Shown here piece by piece: positions 3,760-22,867 of a stretch of 64,000 nucleotides of DNA. Made by a program: the position numbers and the translations under genes. Below the pieces are notes generated by a model that searched no databases, had not been told where the DNA came from, and saw only the letters and a list, made by a program, of their open reading frames with translations. Origin of the DNA: Microcoleus sp. FACHB-831. GTDB lineage: Bacteria > Cyanobacteriota > Cyanobacteriia > Cyanobacteriales > FACHB-T130. The stretch's first letter is position 1. The number at the start of each line of letters is the position of its first letter. The stretch spans positions 310,001 to 374,000 of the forward strand of contig NZ_JACJON010000067.1 of NCBI RefSeq assembly GCF_014695585.1, written 5' to 3'.

Positions 3760-4293
3760 TTAGGCTCTAGCTTTAGAAATGCTGAGCTTAATAACGTAGT
3801 CTGATTGTTTCGTCTCTGAAGGTGCGATTGGGTAAGGCTGCACGTCTATCAATTTGAGGCTGTACTTATCCCCGATTGTTTTAACTGCTAACTCTGGCGC
3901 ACCAGGTTTAATTGCCAAAACTACTTCACCCAGATTCTGACCTTTTTCGACAACATTAAGCACAACTGCTGTTTGTCCTGCGGTAATACACATTACATTA
4001 GCCGGACATCTAGAATCTTCAGATACTTTAAGAAAGCTGATTTTCAGATTTTCCCGCGATACGATTCCTTTCTGACCAACTTTTAGGGTAAATTCTTTAT
4101 TCAAGGTAGTAGGAATTGAGTTGCGTTGTTCTTGATTTTTGATTTTGCGATTTTGTGCTACTAGCTGTTCAGTTTTTATAGGTTTAACTTGCAGTTTTAA
4201 CGAACGAGCAAAAGTCGCTTGTTGCAAGCTCAAACCACTTGCACAAATAAAGCCGAAACAAGACAATCCAAGATAGACATATTTTAATTTCAT
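3760..4293 (-). CDS. secreted hypothetical protein with conserved SRCP-C motif
   Basis: From ATG 4293 the protein has 177 residues and begins with a clear signal peptide (MKLKYVYLGLSCFGFICASG). An upstream in-frame ATG at 4350 would put 19 unrelated residues before the signal, so 4293 is preferred. The mature part contains EFTLKVGQ and a two-cysteine motif SEDSRCPANVMCITAGQ, followed by a beta-rich tail. This pattern (DSRCP..V.C..AG) recurs in small exported proteins of cyanobacteria and Bacteroidetes with no known function; the two Cys probably form a disulfide in the periplasm. Confidence 0.65.
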   Translation of the reverse strand: MKLKYVYLGLSCFGFICASGLSLQQATFARSLKLQVKPIKTEQLVAQNRKIKNQEQRNSIPTTLNKEFTLKVGQKGIVSRENLKISFLKVSEDSRCPANVMCITAGQTAVVLNVVEKGQNLGEVVLAIKPGAPELAVKTIGDKYSLKLIDVQPYPIAPSETKQSDYVIKLSISKARA

Positions 4294-18447: not shown

Positions 18448-19710
18448 ATGCACTTAAACACAGAATCCTCGGCTTTATCTCCCGAAAATTGGCCTTTTAG
18501 TCTAGAATTGCTTCCCCAACCTGCTTATTTAGTCGGGGGCGCGGTGCGCGATGCTTTGCTGGAGCGCCGCCGCGAGTATCTGGATTTAGATTTTGTCATC
18601 CCTACTGATGCGGTAAATACTGCTCGGAAAATTGCCGCTCATTACAATGCTGGATTTGTGTTGCTTGATGCGGATCGTCAAATTGCCAGAGTTGTGTTTA
18701 AGCACGCTACAGCTGATTTTGCTCAAGCCGAGGGCGGGAGCCTGGAAGCAGATTTGTACAGGCGGGACTATAGGATGAATGCGATCGCTTACAATCCCCG
18801 CACTGGTGAAATTATCGACCCCCTTGAAGGTTATGCCGATTTACAACAAGGCATTATTAGGATGGTTTCCGCTAAAAATCTACAAGACGACCCTTTAAGA
18901 TTGCTGCGGGGTTATCGCCAAGCTGCCCAACTAAATTTTAATATCGAGCCAGAAACTCGCTCCGCGATTAGTAAATTAGCACCGTTGCTATCTCAAATAG
19001 CAGCAGAGCGAGTGCGTGTAGAATTTAGCTATCTTTTGGGCATTCCGTTGGGGACTGTGTGGATAACTGCTGCTTTTTGGGATGGGTTACTACCAGTTTG
19101 GTTTCCTAATGTCACCCCAGAAAGTTTAGAGAAAATGGCAGCCGTTGACAGTTGGGCTGTGGCGCTGGCCGAAAGTTGGCCTGAGTTAAAAGCTGAGCTT
19201 TCTGCGGATATTCGCGGCACTATTAAAACAACTTTGTGGAGCGTTGCTAAACTTGCTACTTTGCTACCAGCATCACCCGAAGTAGCAGAAGAACAACTGT
19301 TCCGTTTAAAGTACAGTCGTGTTGAAATCCGGGCTGTTACTACTGTAATTAAATGTTTGCCGACTTTAATAAGCGGTGGAAATCCATCTGAGATGCCGTT
19401 GAGAGAACAATATTTTTTCTTTCGCGGGGCTGAAACAAATTTTTTGGCGATCGCTCTCTTGGCTGTAACATCTGGCGTGGAAGTTGATAGTATTGCTGGC
19501 CTAATTAATCGCTATCTTAATCCAGATGACCAAGTTGCCCATCCCACTCCACTTATTACGGGCAACGAGTTGATGGAAGCCCTAAAAATACCATCTGGAC
19601 AGCTAGTGGGTCAAATTTTGGGCGAGATCCAAGCTTCACGCGCCGAGGGCAAAATCTCCACTCCAGCAGAAGCTTTGGAATTTGCTTCCCAGCTACTTGA
19701 CACCAAGTAA
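18448..19710 (+). CDS. cca: CCA tRNA nucleotidyltransferase / poly(A) polymerase family
   Basis: 420 residues. Class II nucleotidyltransferase motifs: YLVGGAVRDALLERR (residues ~27-41), the metal-binding LDLDFVIP, the YRRDYRMNAIAYNP strand-helix and LQDDPLRLLRGYRQAAQLNF. The family adds or repairs the 3' CCA of tRNAs, or adds poly(A) tails in some paralogues; cyanobacteria may split A- and CC-adding activities. The stop is only 57 bases before the first of four tRNA-like RNA genes on the same strand, and two of the five RNAs of this locus lack an encoded 3' CCA, so a functional link is plausible but unproven. Confidence 0.9.
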   Translation: MHLNTESSALSPENWPFSLELLPQPAYLVGGAVRDALLERRREYLDLDFVIPTDAVNTARKIAAHYNAGFVLLDADRQIARVVFKHATADFAQAEGGSLEADLYRRDYRMNAIAYNPRTGEIIDPLEGYADLQQGIIRMVSAKNLQDDPLRLLRGYRQAAQLNFNIEPETRSAISKLAPLLSQIAAERVRVEFSYLLGIPLGTVWITAAFWDGLLPVWFPNVTPESLEKMAAVDSWAVALAESWPELKAELSADIRGTIKTTLWSVAKLATLLPASPEVAEEQLFRLKYSRVEIRAVTTVIKCLPTLISGGNPSEMPLREQYFFFRGAETNFLAIALLAVTSGVEVDSIAGLINRYLNPDDQVAHPTPLITGNELMEALKIPSGQLVGQILGEIQASRAEGKISTPAEALEFASQLLDTK

Positions 19711-19766
19711 TCTATATACTACATTAGTAATACAAACAGGTTTTCAAGTAGGAGTTAGCGTTTTTT

Positions 19767-19899
19767 GTGGCGGGTAGCTCAATTGGTTAGAGCGCCATCC
19801 TTGCCTTGACGGGCCGATATGTCGAGGGTTATCAATAGAATTAAAAATCCTTGACATACTTCCGGAGGCTGCGGGTTCGAGTCCCGTTCCGCTACACCA
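19767..19899 (+). ncRNA. tRNA-like Y RNA, copy 1
   Basis: The 5' strand GTGGCGGG pairs with TCCGCTAC (19888-19895) as an 8-bp acceptor stem, followed by A and encoded CCA (19897-19899). The D arm GCTC/GAGC (19777-19793) and the T arm GCGGG-TTCGAGT-CCCGT (19871-19887) are canonical. About 77 bases stand where an anticodon arm and variable loop should be: CTTGCC (19800-19805), GGGCCGA (19811-19817), then TGTCGAGG pairing with CCTTGACA (19820-19827/19849-19856) and carrying the conserved GAGGGTTATC. GCC/GGC and TCC/GGA pairs close this insert. No anticodon loop exists, so it cannot decode. The motifs resemble the Ro-binding part of Y RNAs and the Ro gene is downstream. Alternative: a tRNA remnant. 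Confidence 0.8.
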
Positions 19900-19905
19900 A
19901 ATAAC

Positions 19906-19945
19906 TTTAGATTTTAGATTGAAGCTAAAATCTAAAATCCAAAAT
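19906..19945 (+). repeat. heptanucleotide-repeat hairpin between RNA copies 1 and 2
   Basis: TTTAGATTTTAG (19906-19917) pairs over 12 bp with CTAAAATCTAAA (19925-19936), followed by more AAAATCC units. Closely related hairpins follow copy 2 (about 20091-20136) and copy 3 (about 20306-20330). The same word family (AATCCAAAATCC) also appears inside cobN and the 815-residue kinase gene. In the RNA cluster these hairpins could act as processing or pausing signals. Confidence 0.7.
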
Positions 19946-19957
19946 CGCAAATTTCAT

Positions 19958-20087
19958 GTGGCGGGTAGCTCAGTTGGTAGAGTTCCAAACATCCTTAATT
20001 CATAACTTGTCCGAAAGGGCCGACGATTTGAGGGTTATCGACTATTAATCGAGGGGTCGCGGGTTCGAGTCCCGCCCCGCTACACCA
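19958..20087 (+). ncRNA. tRNA-like Y RNA, copy 2
   Basis: The 8-bp acceptor stem GTGGCGGG/CCCGCTAC is followed by A and encoded CCA (20085-20087). The D arm is GCTC-AGTTGGTA-GAGT; the T arm GCGGG-TTCGAGT-CCCGC is perfect. The insert replacing the anticodon arm has CTT (20006-20008), then GTCC-GAAA-GGGC as a 4-bp stem with a GNRA tetraloop (20009-20020), the CG step and then A, and the conserved GAGGGTTATC (20030-20039). CGATT/AATCG pair around that block. No anticodon is present. It lies 58 bases after copy 1 and is probably co-transcribed with the Ro gene. Confidence 0.8.
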
Positions 20088-20159
20088 AACAATTTTAGAT
20101 TTTAGATTTTAGATTGTGGCTAAAATCCAAAATCTTCAATTCCTAATACAAAATATCAT

Positions 20160-20297
20160 GTGGTGGGTAGCCAAGCGGTAAGGCAGCGGACTGGTTCGCC
20201 AGTCATTCCTCGATCGACTCTTGCCTTAAGGGCCGAAAGATTGAGGGTTATCTTTGGGTGACGCGATCGCAGGTTCAAATCCTGCCCCACTACACCA
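20160..20297 (+). ncRNA. tRNA-like Y RNA, copy 3 (tRNA-Gln-like body)
   Basis: The acceptor stem GTGGTGGG/CCCACTAC is followed by A and encoded CCA. The D arm (GCCAAGCGGTAAGGC) and the following AGCGGACT look like a tRNA-Gln body. A perfect 6-bp hairpin GACTGG-TTCG-CCAGTC (20189-20204) stands where the anticodon arm belongs, but its loop is the stable UUCG tetraloop, so there is no anticodon. The Ro-type module sits in the variable-arm position: CTTGCC (20220-20225), GGCCGAAAG (20231-20239), GAGGGTTATC (20243-20252), closed by CGATCG/CGATCG (20211-20216/20264-20269). The T arm GCAGG-TTCAAAT-CCTGC is canonical. This copy matches the Y RNA core words best. Confidence 0.82.
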
Positions 20298-20348
20298 ATT
20301 AATTTTAGATTTTAGATTGGGGCTAAAATCCACGATCGCAAATTTCAT

Positions 20349-20476
20349 GTGGCGGGTAGCTCAGTTGGTAGAGCGCCAAAAACATCCTTAATTCACACCT
20401 TGTCCGAAATGGCCGAAGAGTTGAGGGTTATCGACTCAAAATCGGGTAGTCGCAGGTTCAAGTCCTGCTCCGCCAC
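20349..20476 (+). ncRNA. tRNA-like Y RNA, copy 4
   Basis: The 8-bp acceptor stem GTGGCGGG/TCCGCCAC ends at 20476 and is followed directly by TTTTT; there is no encoded CCA. The D arm GCTC-AGTTGGTA-GAGC and T arm GCAGG-TTCAAGT-CCTGC are canonical. The insert has CTTGTC (20399-20404), a short loop, GGCCGAAG (20411-20418) and GAGTTG-AGGGTTAT-CGACTC (20418-20437), a hairpin that displays the conserved GGGTTAT in its loop. The Ro gene starts 38 bases later. A CCA would have to be added by an enzyme if one is present at all. Confidence 0.8.
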
Positions 20477-20514
20477 TTTTTATTATTGCCCCAATGGGGC
20501 CGGGAGAGTGACAA

Positions 20515-22119
20515 ATGAACTATAAATTCTTCACTCAAAAGAAGACTGGAACACCACAAACTCAGCCGATTCCTGGACGCGAATCAGAGATGATTCAGGG
20601 ACGTTCGGGCGGGTTTATGTTCGATGCTGGTAGCTGGAATATGGTGCGGCGCGGCCTCTTGATTGGTACGGCAAAAAGCACATATTATGCTGGCAAGCGG
20701 GAATTAACTGAGGATTTTGTAGAAGTTTTAAAGGGAGCGATCGCAGAAAATCCCAGCCGAGTTGCAGAAGAAATTATCTACGCTAGCGACGGACGCGCCA
20801 TCAACAACAGCGCCCCCATTTTTGCCCTCGTTTTGCTATCAATGGGAGAAACACCCGAAGCAAAAAAGGCATTTCAAGAAATCTTCCCCGCTGTCGTCCG
20901 TACTGGAAGCCACTTCTACGAATGGCTGAACTACACCAAATCCATGCGCGGATTTGGTAAAGTTATTCGCGAAGTTGGTAAAACTTGGCTATCGCGTGAA
21001 GATATCCAAGGTTTAGCTTACCAACTGTTGAAATATCAGCAGCGTCAAGGCTTCTCGCACCGCGATGCATTGCGACTCTTCCACGTCAAACCAGATACAG
21101 AAGAGCGCAGACAACTGTTTGAATGGGTTGTCAAAGGTTGGGAAGAATTGCCAGCCGAAATACCCTCACCAGCGTTAGCTCAAATTTGGTGGTACGAGTG
21201 GTTGAAGCGCAATCCCGAACAAACCCATCAAGCCATTTCCCAAGGTCATCTTACCCACGAAATGGCCGCACCTGTTGGCAAAATGGACAAGCAAGCATGG
21301 CAGTTGTTGTTCAACGAAATGCCAATCGGTGCAATGCTTCGCCACTTGGGTTCGCTAACTGAAATTGGAGTATTGCGGACAGATGAACCAGCAAATATAG
21401 ACCGCGTTGAAGCTATTCTCAACGACAAAGAACGTCTGCGAAAAGGCCGCATTCACCCAATTGACGTATTAAAAGCCCTCAAAACTTATAAGTCAGGGGG
21501 ACGATTGGGACGAAGCCAGAAAAATTGGAATCCCGTAAGCCGAATTGGGGACATTTTGGAAAAGGCAGTTGAGTTGTCTTTTGATGTTGTAGAACCAACT
21601 GGCAAAGTCTTCATGCACGCCGTAGATATTTCTGGATCGATGTCTGGTGGTGTGGTGAATTCAGTTAATTTGAGTTGCTGCGAGATTGCTACAACAATGG
21701 CACTCGTAACAGCAAAAACCGAGAAAAATTACATGATTCGCGGCTTCTCTACCGAGTTCCGCGACTTGGATATAACTGCCAAGGATAGCTTTAGTTCGGC
21801 TGTTGCAAAAGCTAGCAACCAAAGCTTCGGAGGAACTGATGCTTCTGTTGCTTACAAATGGATGACTAAGAATAAGTTCAAGGCAGATGTAATCTGTTTT
21901 TGGACAGACTCAGAATCATGGGCGGGAAATAGTCATCCTAGTCAAGCGTTGGCTGAGTATCGCAAGAAAGTCAACAAAGACATCAAAGCTGTCTATGTCA
22001 CTCTTGCGCCTTATCAACTCACGCTAGTAGATCCTAAAGATCCCCTTTCTTGGGATTTGGGTGGATTCGACCCAGGCGCACCGCGCCTCATCCAAATGTT
22101 AGCAACAGATGGGCTTTAA
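20515..22119 (+). CDS. rsr: Ro60 orthologue Rsr (TROVE + vWA domains)
   Basis: 534 residues. It begins MNYKFFTQKKTGTPQTQPIPGRE after a GGGAG ribosome binding site. Residues ~20-350 form the TROVE HEAT-repeat ring (typical RFLIGTAKSTYYAGKREL-type segment near 50, and TEIGVLR, IHPIDVLKALKTYKSG). A von Willebrand A domain follows with the MIDAS motif DISGSMS at ~370 and GGTDAS at ~440. Ro proteins bind Y RNAs on the outer ring surface and misfolded RNA ends in the cavity, acting in RNA quality control and stress survival. The four tRNA-like RNAs directly upstream and one downstream are the likely Y RNA partners. The match over the whole length makes this call very secure. Confidence 0.95.
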   Translation: MNYKFFTQKKTGTPQTQPIPGRESEMIQGRSGGFMFDAGSWNMVRRGLLIGTAKSTYYAGKRELTEDFVEVLKGAIAENPSRVAEEIIYASDGRAINNSAPIFALVLLSMGETPEAKKAFQEIFPAVVRTGSHFYEWLNYTKSMRGFGKVIREVGKTWLSREDIQGLAYQLLKYQQRQGFSHRDALRLFHVKPDTEERRQLFEWVVKGWEELPAEIPSPALAQIWWYEWLKRNPEQTHQAISQGHLTHEMAAPVGKMDKQAWQLLFNEMPIGAMLRHLGSLTEIGVLRTDEPANIDRVEAILNDKERLRKGRIHPIDVLKALKTYKSGGRLGRSQKNWNPVSRIGDILEKAVELSFDVVEPTGKVFMHAVDISGSMSGGVVNSVNLSCCEIATTMALVTAKTEKNYMIRGFSTEFRDLDITAKDSFSSAVAKASNQSFGGTDASVAYKWMTKNKFKADVICFWTDSESWAGNSHPSQALAEYRKKVNKDIKAVYVTLAPYQLTLVDPKDPLSWDLGGFDPGAPRLIQMLATDGL

Positions 22120-22151
22120 CTAACATTTTGCACCATTATTTCGACACTGGA

Positions 22152-22220
22152 GAGGCAGCAGACCATTGAGCATCGTTCCCAGGTTCAGCCTGGGAATGAG
22201 AATTAGTGGGCTGCTGCCTC
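22152..22220. repeat. two-tier palindrome after rsr
   Basis: GAGGCAGCAG (22152-22161) pairs with CTGCTGCCTC (22211-22220), and inside lies TTCCCAGG/CCTGGGAA (22176-22183/22189-22196), the same palindrome as at 16385-16406. It lies between the Ro gene and RNA copy 5 and could form a strong transcript hairpin, although no T-run follows. Confidence 0.6.
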
Positions 22221-22259
22221 AATGTGCCAATGGTGTTAGATATGGGCTATAACAGAATT

Positions 22260-22530
22260 GTGGCGGGTGGCGAAAATGGAACAGACCCCTTGGTTCGCCC
22301 CTTGCCCTTACGGGCCGCAGATTTGAGGGTTATTTCAATCCCTGATAGGGATTGTTACATTGCCACCTTAGCCCCAATAATTTAACCCCTGATAGGTATT
22401 TAAGAATATCCTACCATATCCCCCGGCTTGGGAAGGCCAGCTATATCCAAATGAAAACCCCTATAACGCGAAGGACTCAGAATCCTTTGAGCGCAAGTCT
22501 GTGCAGGTTCAAATCCTGCCCCGCCGCACC
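22260..22530 (+). ncRNA. tRNA-Leu(CAG)-like Y RNA, copy 5
   Basis: The 5' GTGGCGGG pairs with CCCGCCGC at the 3' end (8 bp). A Leu-type D region (TGGCGAAAATGGAACAGAC) follows, then about 180 inserted bases, then a full tRNA-Leu 3' part: anticodon stem AAGGA/TCCTT (22471-22487) with loop CTCAGAA and anticodon CAG, a class II variable arm (TGAGCGCAAGTCTG), and T arm GCAGG-TTCAAAT-CCTGC. The insert starts with the Ro-type module: CTT-GCCC-TTAC-GGGC (22301-22315), CG, then GAGGGTTAT (22325-22333). The remaining ~130 bases are unexplained and include an AATCCCT/AGGGATT hairpin. No CCA is encoded. It could be a Y RNA, or a tRNA-Leu from which the insert is removed. Confidence 0.7.
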
Positions 22531-22540
22531 TAAATTTTGA

Positions 22541-22867
22541 CTATCAGCTAATAATTTTTATAGGCGATAAGTGGTTTTATTATCATGAATAGAAAAATGA
22601 TATTTCCCCTAATATTTTTACTATTTCAAATACTTTATCTTTGCAAGAGCGTGCGGATTATATTGCTTTAACAGAAAGTATTGGCTACACAGATGCTCCT
22701 ATAAATACAGGTAGTAAATTTGATATAAACTCAAATATTCGCAACACTACCCGCAGAATTATTGATAATCAAGGACGTACAGCCAATTTGCCGATTCATG
22801 TGGCATATTATGTCCCCAATACTATAGATAATTGGCGTGCAATCGGTTTTAACGAGCGCTTGTGTTT
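22541..22867 (+). other. unassigned stretch with an open frame of unknown meaning
   Basis: Between RNA copy 5 and the GrpB gene. A frame open from 22593 reads into the GrpB 3' end on the other strand; its residues include QERADYIALTESIGYTDAP and NLPIHVAYYVPNTIDNW, which look protein-like in composition. There is no ATG or ribosome binding site at its beginning. It may be a fragment of a decayed gene. No family recognised. Confidence 0.25.

What the first reader, a model, noticed from the sequence alone, without database searches (positions are those of the whole stretch)
22260..22530. tRNA-Leu(CAG) split by a ~180-base insert between D arm and anticodon arm
The 3' part is a textbook tRNA-Leu with a 5-bp anticodon stem, loop CTCAGAA and a class II variable arm. 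The 5' part is Leu-like up to the D arm. The insert starts with the Ro-type module and continues with ~130 unexplained bases. Bacterial tRNA introns known to me lie in the anticodon arm, not at this junction. It may show how a tRNA became a Y RNA, or be a tRNA processed by an unknown route.
Basis: partly seen in the sequence, partly recalled or inferred. Interest (0 to 1): 0.85.

Follow-up and report, generated by a model that had tools for sequence, protein, structure and literature searches.

The report
tRNA-shaped Y RNA split by repeat
The odd 'split tRNA' looks like a small RNA gene for partnering the Ro protein: its body is a complete tRNA shape with a Ro-type hairpin built in, and in this cyanobacterium a 133-base repeat has landed inside it; related cyanobacteria carry arrays of such RNAs, which look like the known bacterial Y RNA with its parts in rotated order.

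Summary
The Leu-like halves are real, but this is neither an intron-bearing tRNA nor a lone relic. It is the fifth of a set of Y RNA genes around a Ro60/Rsr gene (20515-22119), each a tRNA shape with the Ro-type hairpin inserted. Two relatives have the same Leu-type RNA downstream of ro, 137 and 140 nt long, without the '130 unexplained bases'. Those 133 bases (22334-22466) belong to a dispersed repeat that starts like this genome's CRISPR repeat. An intact tRNA-Leu(CAG) exists elsewhere.

The wider result is more interesting: 79 of 82 stretches around cyanobacterial ro genes carry 1-7 Y motifs; 40 aligned units share an 8-bp acceptor stem, D, T and anticodon-like arms (21 of 34 pairs with compensatory change). 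U33 is kept (157 of 163 loops) while the anticodon triplet varies (34 kinds). A model of these units, cut and rejoined at the Ro hairpin, finds Y RNAs beside phage Ro genes, so they appear to be a circular permutation of YrlA. Transcription, processing and Ro binding are inferred; whether the split copy still works is open. The key 2014 and 2018 Y RNA papers were not available to me.

The parts
22260..22527 (+). Leu-type tRNA-shelled Y RNA gene, interrupted copy (without the 3' end)
   Evidence: 8-bp acceptor 22260-22267/22520-22527; aligned with uninterrupted copies in G036 (L162) and L046
22286..22333 (+). Y (Ro-type) hairpin module, intact up to GGGTTAT; the next conserved CG reads TT
   Evidence: 84% identical to G036 over 76 nt (22258-22333); motif class found at 295 sites in 79 of 82 stretches
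22334..22466 (+). 133-nt insert: copy of a dispersed repeat (which itself seems to run from TATTTCAATCCCTGATAGGGATT, about 22331, to CTATAAC, about 22467)
   Evidence: absent from G036 and L046; 83% match to C76:506-597; further copies; CRISPR-DR5 match 22353-22333, 29.8 bits, below the gathering score of 40
22471..22487 (+). anticodon arm, loop CTCAGAA (CAG); CAA in L046 and G036
22488..22502 (+). degraded variable arm (one A.C mismatch)
22503..22519 (+). T arm GCAGG-TTCAAAT-CCTGC
19767..19895 (+). upstream tRNA-shelled Y RNA unit 1
   Evidence: R1 54.5 bits; Rfam tRNA 37.4 bits with insert
19958..20083 (+). upstream unit 2
   Evidence: R1 122.4 bits, part of the training set; Rfam tRNA 39 bits with insert
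20160..20293 (+). upstream unit 3
   Evidence: R1 65.1 bits; Rfam tRNA 37.9 bits with insert
20349..20476 (+). upstream unit 4
   Evidence: R1 125.4 bits, part of the training set; Rfam tRNA 27.7 bits, under the cut-off of 29
20486..20506 (+). Y-like hairpin and ribosome-binding-site-like GGGAG in the leader of the ro mRNA (candidate autoregulation site)
   Evidence: loose pattern in 81 of 82 leaders against 553 of 10276 ATGs in the same loci
20515..22119 (+). ro (Rsr, Ro60 orthologue), 534 aa
   Evidence: Pfam vWA_Ro60 1e-38, TROVE 2e-16
19697..19725 (+). promoter-like site TTGACA-17-TACATT before unit 1
   Evidence: 6 such sites found in 19600-22700, 4.3 expected, so weak
18448..19710 (+). 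CCA-adding enzyme/poly(A) polymerase-type gene beside the array
   Evidence: Pfam; a homologue is in 5 of 80 named ro loci; a similar C-terminal stretch lies before the G036 array by inspection

Best explanation
The element is a Y RNA gene whose RNA folds as a complete tRNA body (8-bp acceptor, D, anticodon-like and T arms) with a Ro-type hairpin built in. It belongs to a set of such units that flank the ro gene in cyanobacteria, and in this strain it is interrupted by a 133-nt dispersed repeat. Most likely working (inferred): the units are transcribed, perhaps with ro; tRNA end-processing enzymes (RNase P, 3' processing, CCA addition) cut out and finish each unit; Ro/Rsr binds the hairpin; the tRNA-shaped body is the handle by which the RNP meets tRNA-binding partners (PNPase, or tRNA-modifying or tRNA-cleaving enzymes). 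The 8+5 bp acceptor/T stack, as in tRNA-Sec, would keep it out of EF-Tu and translation, so no splicing is needed and the 'insert' is the working part. The units are the circularly permuted counterpart of YrlA: same helices, but ends at the acceptor instead of at the Ro stem. Shown here: architecture, conservation, covariation, co-occurrence with ro, the empty site, the repeat family, the rotated-model match. Not shown: transcription, processing, Ro binding, partner.
For: 295 Y motifs in 79 of 82 ro stretches, 288 fitting an acceptor + T arm. In 161 of 295 where both arms were found without using pairing, 122 have 8/8 acceptor pairs; mean 6.98 against 6.02 shuffled (maximum 6.23 of 1000); better than with the next unit in 65 of 88, equal in 10, worse in 13. 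40 aligned units: 98.3% of cells paired, 21 of 34 pairs with double changes, 0 of 500 shuffles as high, slid controls 39-50%. Removing the Y module turns 0 of 40 into 40 of 40 ARAGORN tRNAs, 6 of them without a clear anticodon. U33 in 157 of 163 loops, 34 triplets. R1 above 60 bits in 22 of 244 genomes, the same 22 that hold the 120-145-bit Ro type; in 8 genomes asked for by handle, the 4 with ro have units at 107 bits or more beside it. Uninterrupted orthologues G036 and L046 fold into this shape as their minimum-energy structure. Repeat copies elsewhere. Rotated model R2 finds Y RNAs beside three phage Ro genes at 56.7-58.3 bits against at most 32.4 at tRNA-array junctions of this genome.
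Against: No expression data. The window copy scores only 26.5 bits with R1, misaligned into the insert, and has lost GGTAGA of the D loop and one variable-arm pair, so it may be a relic. The downstream Leu-type RNA is patchy: of the five same-family genomes G001-G005 only G002 has ro, with two upstream units and no R1 match in the 1.5 kb after ro; the downstream units of L086 and G092 are of another type. Single-sequence folds of two upstream window units are only mildly better than shuffles (z -1.2 and -2.6), and that of unit 2 does not give the clover leaf. The rotated model meets the one Rfam-certified YrlA at only 36.7 bits, and phage Myrna and the Bosea plasmid at 36.3 and 34.7, little above the tRNA-junction background of 32.4; it gives 27.6 for G143 and nothing beside two other Ro genes, L224 and L225. 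3 of 82 stretches had no motif by this pattern (L101 holds only 167 bases upstream; L078 and L101 do show the 3' end of a unit); 7 of 295 motifs were not fitted.
Confidence: 0.85

Rival explanations
1. Dead relic (compatible with the best explanation for the rest of the set): the downstream Leu-type Y RNA of this strain was inactivated by the repeat and is decaying, while the four upstream units still work.
For: Lost GGTAGA, A.C mismatch in the variable arm, GGGTTAT followed by TT instead of CG; the model cannot bridge the insert; the Leu-type unit is patchy among relatives.
Against: Acceptor 8/8, anticodon stem 5/5, T stem 5/5 and Y hairpin still intact; short repeats sit in the T loops of other Y units (5 of the 7 unfitted motifs by inspection), so such genes can carry inserts, though these too may be dead.
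Confidence: 0.5
2. A tRNA with an intron removed by an unknown route and used in translation (the first reader's second idea; also the published 'group I intron' reading of similar genes).
For: ARAGORN calls tRNAs when the Y part is taken out; [quoted passage not shown]
Against: The insert is a conserved Ro-type hairpin beside ro; intact tRNA-Leu(CAG) exists; anticodon triplets vary (34 kinds in 163); the Y hairpin sits at different joints (D loop, D/anticodon junction and, by inspection, the anticodon loop); 22-49 nt is far too short for a group I intron (established knowledge), and the motifs listed there occur in order in 19 of 295 of our Y modules.
Confidence: 0.04
3. The functional RNAs of the array are YrlA-form RNAs running from the Ro loop of one unit to the Ro loop of the next, and the tRNA-form reading is an artefact of tandem arrangement.
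For: Rfam YrlA matches across units 3 and 4 of the window (32 bits, cut-off 69).
Against: Acceptor strands pair better within the unit than with the next in 65 of 88 (worse in 13); spacers between units are tens to hundreds of bases whereas caps of YrlA-type RNAs seen here are a few bases; units stand downstream of ro in 46 of 80 loci, and 9 of 82 stretches have a single upstream unit; YrlA over its cut-off in 0 of 244 genomes.
Confidence: 0.06

Closest known systems
YrlA (Y RNA-like A, Rfam RF02553), the tRNA-mimicking bacterial Y RNA
   Same: Beside ro; Ro-binding stem with a similar sequence signature; D arm, T arm and acceptor-like helix; rotated model R2 recognises such RNAs beside phage Ro genes.
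   Different: YrlA has its 5' and 3' ends in the Ro stem (PMC8394870, passages) and a capped acceptor helix in the Rfam model; the units here have their ends at the acceptor and a closed Ro hairpin; RF02553 scores them below cut-off.
Transfer RNA (class I shells upstream; class II Leu shell downstream)
   Same: Acceptor, D arm, anticodon-loop U33, T arm; ACCA follows the stem in 58 of 174 units.
   Different: 8-bp acceptor, Y hairpin inserted, free anticodon triplet; not called by ARAGORN as they stand (0 of 40).
Cyanobacterial tRNA 'group I introns' of PMC5733544
   Same: The conserved motifs TTxxC, CTTGxCT, AAGxC, GAAGAAT, GG listed for two of the three introns occur in that order in 19 of 295 Y modules: these two are very probably Y hairpins. 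Inference; the genes themselves were not fetched.
   Different: They were read as introns; here as the functional part. The third (tRNA-Arg, 22 nt) shares no motif and is not explained.
Vertebrate Y RNA lower stem (Ro-binding site)
   Same: Bulged stem with CCGA and GUUAU-like strands (resemblance recalled, not tested by a model).
   Different: Here the stem is closed by a hairpin loop and the rest of the RNA is a tRNA.

Membership tests
YrlA (RF02553) | score above the Rfam gathering cut-off | tested here: not met
   32 and 28.5 bits against 69 in the window; 0 of 244 genomes over the cut-off, with the stricter filters used for over 40 genomes
YrlA (RF02553) | 5' and 3' ends form the Ro-binding stem, acceptor-like helix capped | tested here: not met
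   acceptor strands lie at the two ends of each unit and covary; Ro hairpin closed by a loop
YrlA (RF02553) | homologous helices and Ro motif irrespective of strand order | tested here: met
   rotated model R2: 58.3, 57.9, 57.6, 56.7 bits beside three phage Ro genes; but only 36.7 bits for the Rfam-certified YrlA of L234, with tRNA-junction background up to 32.4
YrlA (RF02553) | encoded next to ro/rsr | tested here: met
   79 of 82 stretches; 22 of 22 genomes
Y RNA (any) | binds Ro60/Rsr | not testable with these tools
   needs pull-down or gel shift
functional tRNA | recognised as tRNA as it stands | tested here: not met
   ARAGORN 0 in window, 0 of 40 units; against this, Rfam's tRNA model matches three of the four upstream window units above its cut-off (37.4-39 bits) by treating the Y part as an insertion
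functional tRNA | anticodon fixed and read | tested here: not met
   34 different triplets in 163 loops; U33 kept in 157
group I intron tRNA | group I intron core in the anticodon loop | tested here: not met
   no group I intron family among the Rfam matches of the window at gathering score (2 matches) or of 19700-22600 up to E 5 (12 matches)
CRISPR array | several repeats with regular spacers | tested here: not met
   one repeat-like core plus an 83% alike 23-mer 47 nt further on; arrays with this core are on C28 and C42

The most novel reading that the evidence does not exclude
Cyanobacterial Ro RNPs use a class of tRNAs withdrawn from translation: complete tRNA bodies with an 8-bp acceptor, a kept U33 but free anticodon, and a built-in Ro hairpin. 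The same RNA exists in nature in two circular permutations (this one and YrlA). A tandem array of either form contains the other form across its junction (one weak example of each seen here), which gives a simple route for one to turn into the other. The varied anticodon loops may serve as decoys for, or baits of, tRNA-cleaving or tRNA-modifying enzymes, and the ro mRNA leader carries the same hairpin tip for feedback control.
Probability: 0.5. Interest if true: 0.82.

Novelty: new variant of a known kind. Interest (0 to 1): 0.62.

Why it matters
Bacterial Y RNAs are known to mimic tRNA, but how a tRNA and a Y RNA came to share one molecule is open. A family in which the tRNA is whole, and which relates to YrlA by circular permutation, makes that question testable by mapping ends and by tandem-array genetics. 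It also offers a new reading of two cyanobacterial tRNA 'introns' in print, points to a laboratory strain (Picosynechococcus sp. PCC 7002, three candidate units before the Ro gene on plasmid pAQ7) where it can be tested, and warns that such genes are missed by ARAGORN and score below cut-off with the current Rfam YrlA model.

Tried and rejected
Considered and rejected: tRNA intron or split tRNA (see rivals); a CRISPR array in the insert; an insert specific to the Leu RNA's function (absent from both relatives). Single-sequence folds against shuffles are not decisive for the upstream units. The CCA-enzyme neighbour looked meaningful but was found in only 5 of 80 named loci. The promoter scan is barely above chance. 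The first unit-fitting script fitted 204 of 287 and chose some wrong acceptors; it was replaced (288 of 295). A stricter leader pattern gave 50 of 82; the looser one 81 of 82, with 553 of 10276 control ATGs; the looser pattern was chosen after seeing the first result.

Papers: Chen 2014, Wang 2018 and Sim 2018 are not held; the 2013 Cell and 2020 review papers of the same group were not looked up. PMC7790460, PMC8394870, PMC9569102, PMC4726728, PMC8058203: passages only. PMC5733544: passages and section 12. Nine searches listed, by title and start of abstract, no paper on tRNA-shelled Y RNAs in cyanobacteria; a description in the papers I could not read cannot be excluded.

Dropped rows: from 156 units with 8/8 acceptor, TTCRANT-type loop and 112-140 nt (of 288 fitted), 74 were kept after removing near-duplicates, 46 were class I by pattern, and 40 of those 46 were aligned (left out by hand as different in type: window unit 1, L066:3520, L072:634, L075:3467, L076:3440, L117:3278). 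Window units 1 and 3 and the Leu types are therefore not in the model. The 163 loops are those of the 288 units that fit a 7-nt loop closed by a pair.

Full report
What the finding is. The window lies in a cyanobacterium (named relatives). A Ro60/Rsr gene (20515-22119; Pfam vWA_Ro60 1e-38, TROVE 2e-16) is preceded by four tRNA-like elements (19767-19895, 19958-20083, 20160-20293, 20349-20476) and followed by the element of the finding (22260-22527). All five contain the same kind of hairpin, with a CCTT/CCTC...TTG.C strand and a GGCCG...GAGGGTTAT strand. Default ARAGORN sees none. Rfam's tRNA model sees two at its cut-off with a large insert and a third in a narrower search; the fourth has 27.7 bits against 29.

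The extra bases. A DNA search of 120 whole genomes (the own one and relatives) with the element gave, besides the window itself, one orthologue matching in two pieces: query 19-94 and 228-289, which are only 8 bases apart in genome G036. It lies downstream of ro there too. A second orthologue is in L046 (Cyanobacteria bacterium UBA11370). Aligned, both lack 133 bases (22334-22466) and have instead CGGTAGA(C), the second half of the D loop. The 133 bases match 83% over 93 nt to C76 of the same genome. Further copies that begin TATTTCAATCCCTGATAGGGATT or nearly so were seen on C40, C80, C32, C45, C58 (two), C62, C48 and C81 and in G001 and G004. C76, C40 and C80 end in GCTATAAC and C48 in GCATAAC, like CCTATAAC in the window; the others resemble it mainly at the start. 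TTTCAATCCCTGATAGGGATT (21 bases) is also in the repeat of this genome's CRISPR array on C28, and its 17-base palindrome recurs in an array on C42. Rfam gives a sub-threshold CRISPR-DR5 match (29.8 bits against 40). I read it as insertion of a dispersed repeat whose start resembles the CRISPR repeat.

The uninterrupted gene. L046 (137 nt) and G036 (140 nt) have as their minimum-energy fold a Leu-type clover leaf with the Y hairpin inside the D loop (-50 and -49.5 kcal/mol, z -2.5 and -2.2). The anticodon is CAA in both and CAG in the window. The genome has its own tRNA-Leu(CAG) at C52:15132-15215 and an array-type copy on C29, so this element is not needed for decoding. The Leu-type unit is not general: of the same-family genomes G001-G005 only G002 has ro, with two upstream units and no R1 match in the 1.5 kb after ro; the downstream units of L086 and G092 are of another type, without a D arm.

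The family. In 80 named cyanobacterial ro loci plus the window and G036, 295 Y motifs were found in 79 of 82 stretches; 288 could be fitted to an acceptor stem and T arm. The fit favours pairing, so acceptor strands were also located without using pairing: in the 161 of 295 units where both were found, 122 pair in 8 of 8 positions, the mean is 6.98 against 6.02 for shuffled partners (maximum 6.23 in 1000), and pairing is better within the unit than with the next unit in 65 of 88, equal in 10, worse in 13 (25 of the 161 pair in 4 or fewer positions, where the D-arm pattern seems to have caught a wrong place). Forty units were aligned. The structure (8-bp acceptor, D stem, Ro stem with bulges, anticodon-like arm, T stem) holds in 98.3% of cells; 21 of 34 pairs show double changes; 0 of 500 shuffles reach any of the five measures; sliding the partners drops pairing to 39-50%. 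RNAalifold on its own predicts 31 pairs, 21 with compensatory change. With the Y part deleted, ARAGORN calls a tRNA in 40 of 40 (6 with no clear anticodon); with it, 0 of 40. In 163 units with a closed 7-nt loop, U33 is kept in 157, while the triplet at 34-36 takes 34 forms. The stem is followed by ACCA in 58 of 174 units. Units lie downstream of ro in 46 of the 80 stretches with 900 bases or more there.

Distribution. In 244 genomes drawn from the phylum, model R1 exceeds 60 bits in 22 (scored with stricter filters, 14 first-look candidates a genome); ordinary tRNAs in the list reach 58.6. The vWA_Ro60 family is over its cut-off in 28 of 244; the 22 genomes whose Ro scores 120-145 bits are exactly the 22 with R1 above 60, each best hit on the same contig within about 2.5 kb of the Ro domain. 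The other Ro carriers (G216, G135, G151, G153 with 203-229 bits; G133 and G143 weak) are of other types. Rfam's YrlA is over its cut-off in 0 of 244. A named laboratory strain, Picosynechococcus sp. PCC 7002, has three candidate units before ro on plasmid pAQ7: 83.9 bits, and 50.6 and 47.6 bits, which lie within the range of ordinary tRNAs but show the Y hairpin by inspection; the gene table I saw omits RNA genes.

Relation to YrlA. The Rfam YrlA model reads Ro strand, T arm, capped acceptor, D arm, Ro strand; it matches the window across units 3 and 4 (20229-20409, 32 bits, cut-off 69). To test permutation directly, 20 units were cut in the Ro loop and rejoined at the acceptor, and a model R2 was built. 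R2 finds full-length matches beside Ro in Gordonia phage Cashline (58.3 and 57.9 bits), Microbacterium phage FuzzBuster (57.6), Mycobacterium phage Sparky (56.7), a Rhizobium plasmid (49.6 and 36.7, the latter being the place Rfam certifies as YrlA with 98.4 bits), G216 (49.1), G153 (46.3), phage Myrna (36.3) and a Bosea plasmid (34.7), and a partial one in G149 (41.7). Background at junctions of ordinary tRNAs in the same call reaches 32.4 bits (L031); G143's YrlA-like RNA scores only 27.6, below that; L224 and L225 gave none. In the six phage and plasmid stretches scanned, only that one place on the Rhizobium plasmid passes Rfam's YrlA cut-off, so the phage RNAs are YrlA-like by their order of arms, not by Rfam. 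The unrotated R1 on the same set gives its best scores to ordinary tRNAs; it also gives a match across Cashline's two tandem YrlA-like RNAs (41.8 bits) and a 126-nt tRNA-form candidate in G153 (44.9 bits), both within the range of ordinary tRNAs (up to 55.7). By inspection the G153 candidate has an 8-bp acceptor and a Y-like hairpin, so G153 may carry both forms near one ro gene. A tandem array of either form thus contains something like the other form across the junction, the usual route for circular permutation. Direction of change is not determined.

The leader of ro. Before the ro start codon, the mRNA has TTGCC-loop-GGGCCGGGAG (20486-20506), like the tip of the Y hairpin joined to a ribosome-binding-site-like GGGAG. 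A loose pattern for it is present in 81 of 82 leaders against 553 of 10276 ATGs in the same loci; a stricter one in 50 of 82. Feedback by Ro is a hypothesis.

A published reading to revise. PMC5733544 (section 12) reports group I introns of 22-49 nt in three cyanobacterial tRNA genes. For two of them (tRNA-Gly of Nostoc sp. PCC 7107, tRNA-Lys of Gloeocapsa sp. PCC 73106) it lists conserved motifs TTxxC, CTTGxCT, AAGxC, GAAGAAT, GG. These occur in this order in 19 of 295 Y modules (24 without the first; 27 hits of the latter in all 738 kb searched). I infer that these two 'introns' are Y hairpins; I did not fetch the genes.

How it most likely works. Shown: the anatomy, its conservation with ro, the covariation and the empty site. 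Inferred from established knowledge: RNase P and 3' enzymes recognise the acceptor/T domain and would mature the ends; an 8+5-bp stack as in tRNA-Sec disfavours EF-Tu. Rsr and Y RNA in Deinococcus join PNPase (PMC7790460 and PMC8394870, passages). Whether the interrupted window copy is still used I put at even odds: acceptor, T and anticodon stems and Y hairpin are intact, but the D loop lost GGTAGA and the variable arm has a mismatch.

Noticed in passing
window 20486-20506 and the leaders of 81 of 82 ro loci: Y-like hairpin next to the ribosome-binding site of ro, a possible autoregulation site.
   Followed up: partly
window 22331-22467; C76:506-597, C40:193212, C80:2023, C48:11434, C58:6652 and 6777, C32, C45, C62, C81: Dispersed repeat family whose start equals the core of the genome's CRISPR repeat; origin (mobile element or stray CRISPR repeat) unknown.
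   Followed up: partly
L068:3445, L075:3682, L075:3874, L094:3694, L094:3877 (also L050 near 3412 by inspection): Nostocales Y units with a short repeat-like insert in the T loop: recurrent insertion into these RNAs.
   Followed up: no
L226 (G216:C31:42500-47500): A different type of Ro gene inside a dense tRNA array, with a YrlA-form RNA beside it (49.1 bits with R2); Mycobacterium phage Sparky also has tRNAs next to its Ro.
   Followed up: no
L224:4031-4096 and 4171-4236: Next to a Ro gene, two near-threshold matches to a nematode sRNA family (RF01656, 37.4 bits against 38, and 31.3).
   Followed up: no
G092:C10:73181-75527 (L238, L239): A ro gene in two pieces (residues 1-253 and 257-532) about 760 bases apart, so apparently interrupted, with units still around it.
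   Followed up: no
G000:C29:1000-9200 (L031): A separate array with 38 tRNA genes in the same genome, including a class I-like tRNA-Leu(CAG).
   Followed up: no
window 22152-22220: Long inverted repeat (32-nt arms, 78%) between ro and the Leu-type Y RNA.
   Followed up: no
minus strand of Y units, e.g. window 20406-20473: Sub-threshold matches to the 'Plastid-ycf2' Rfam family, which looks like an antisense tRNA model.
   Followed up: no
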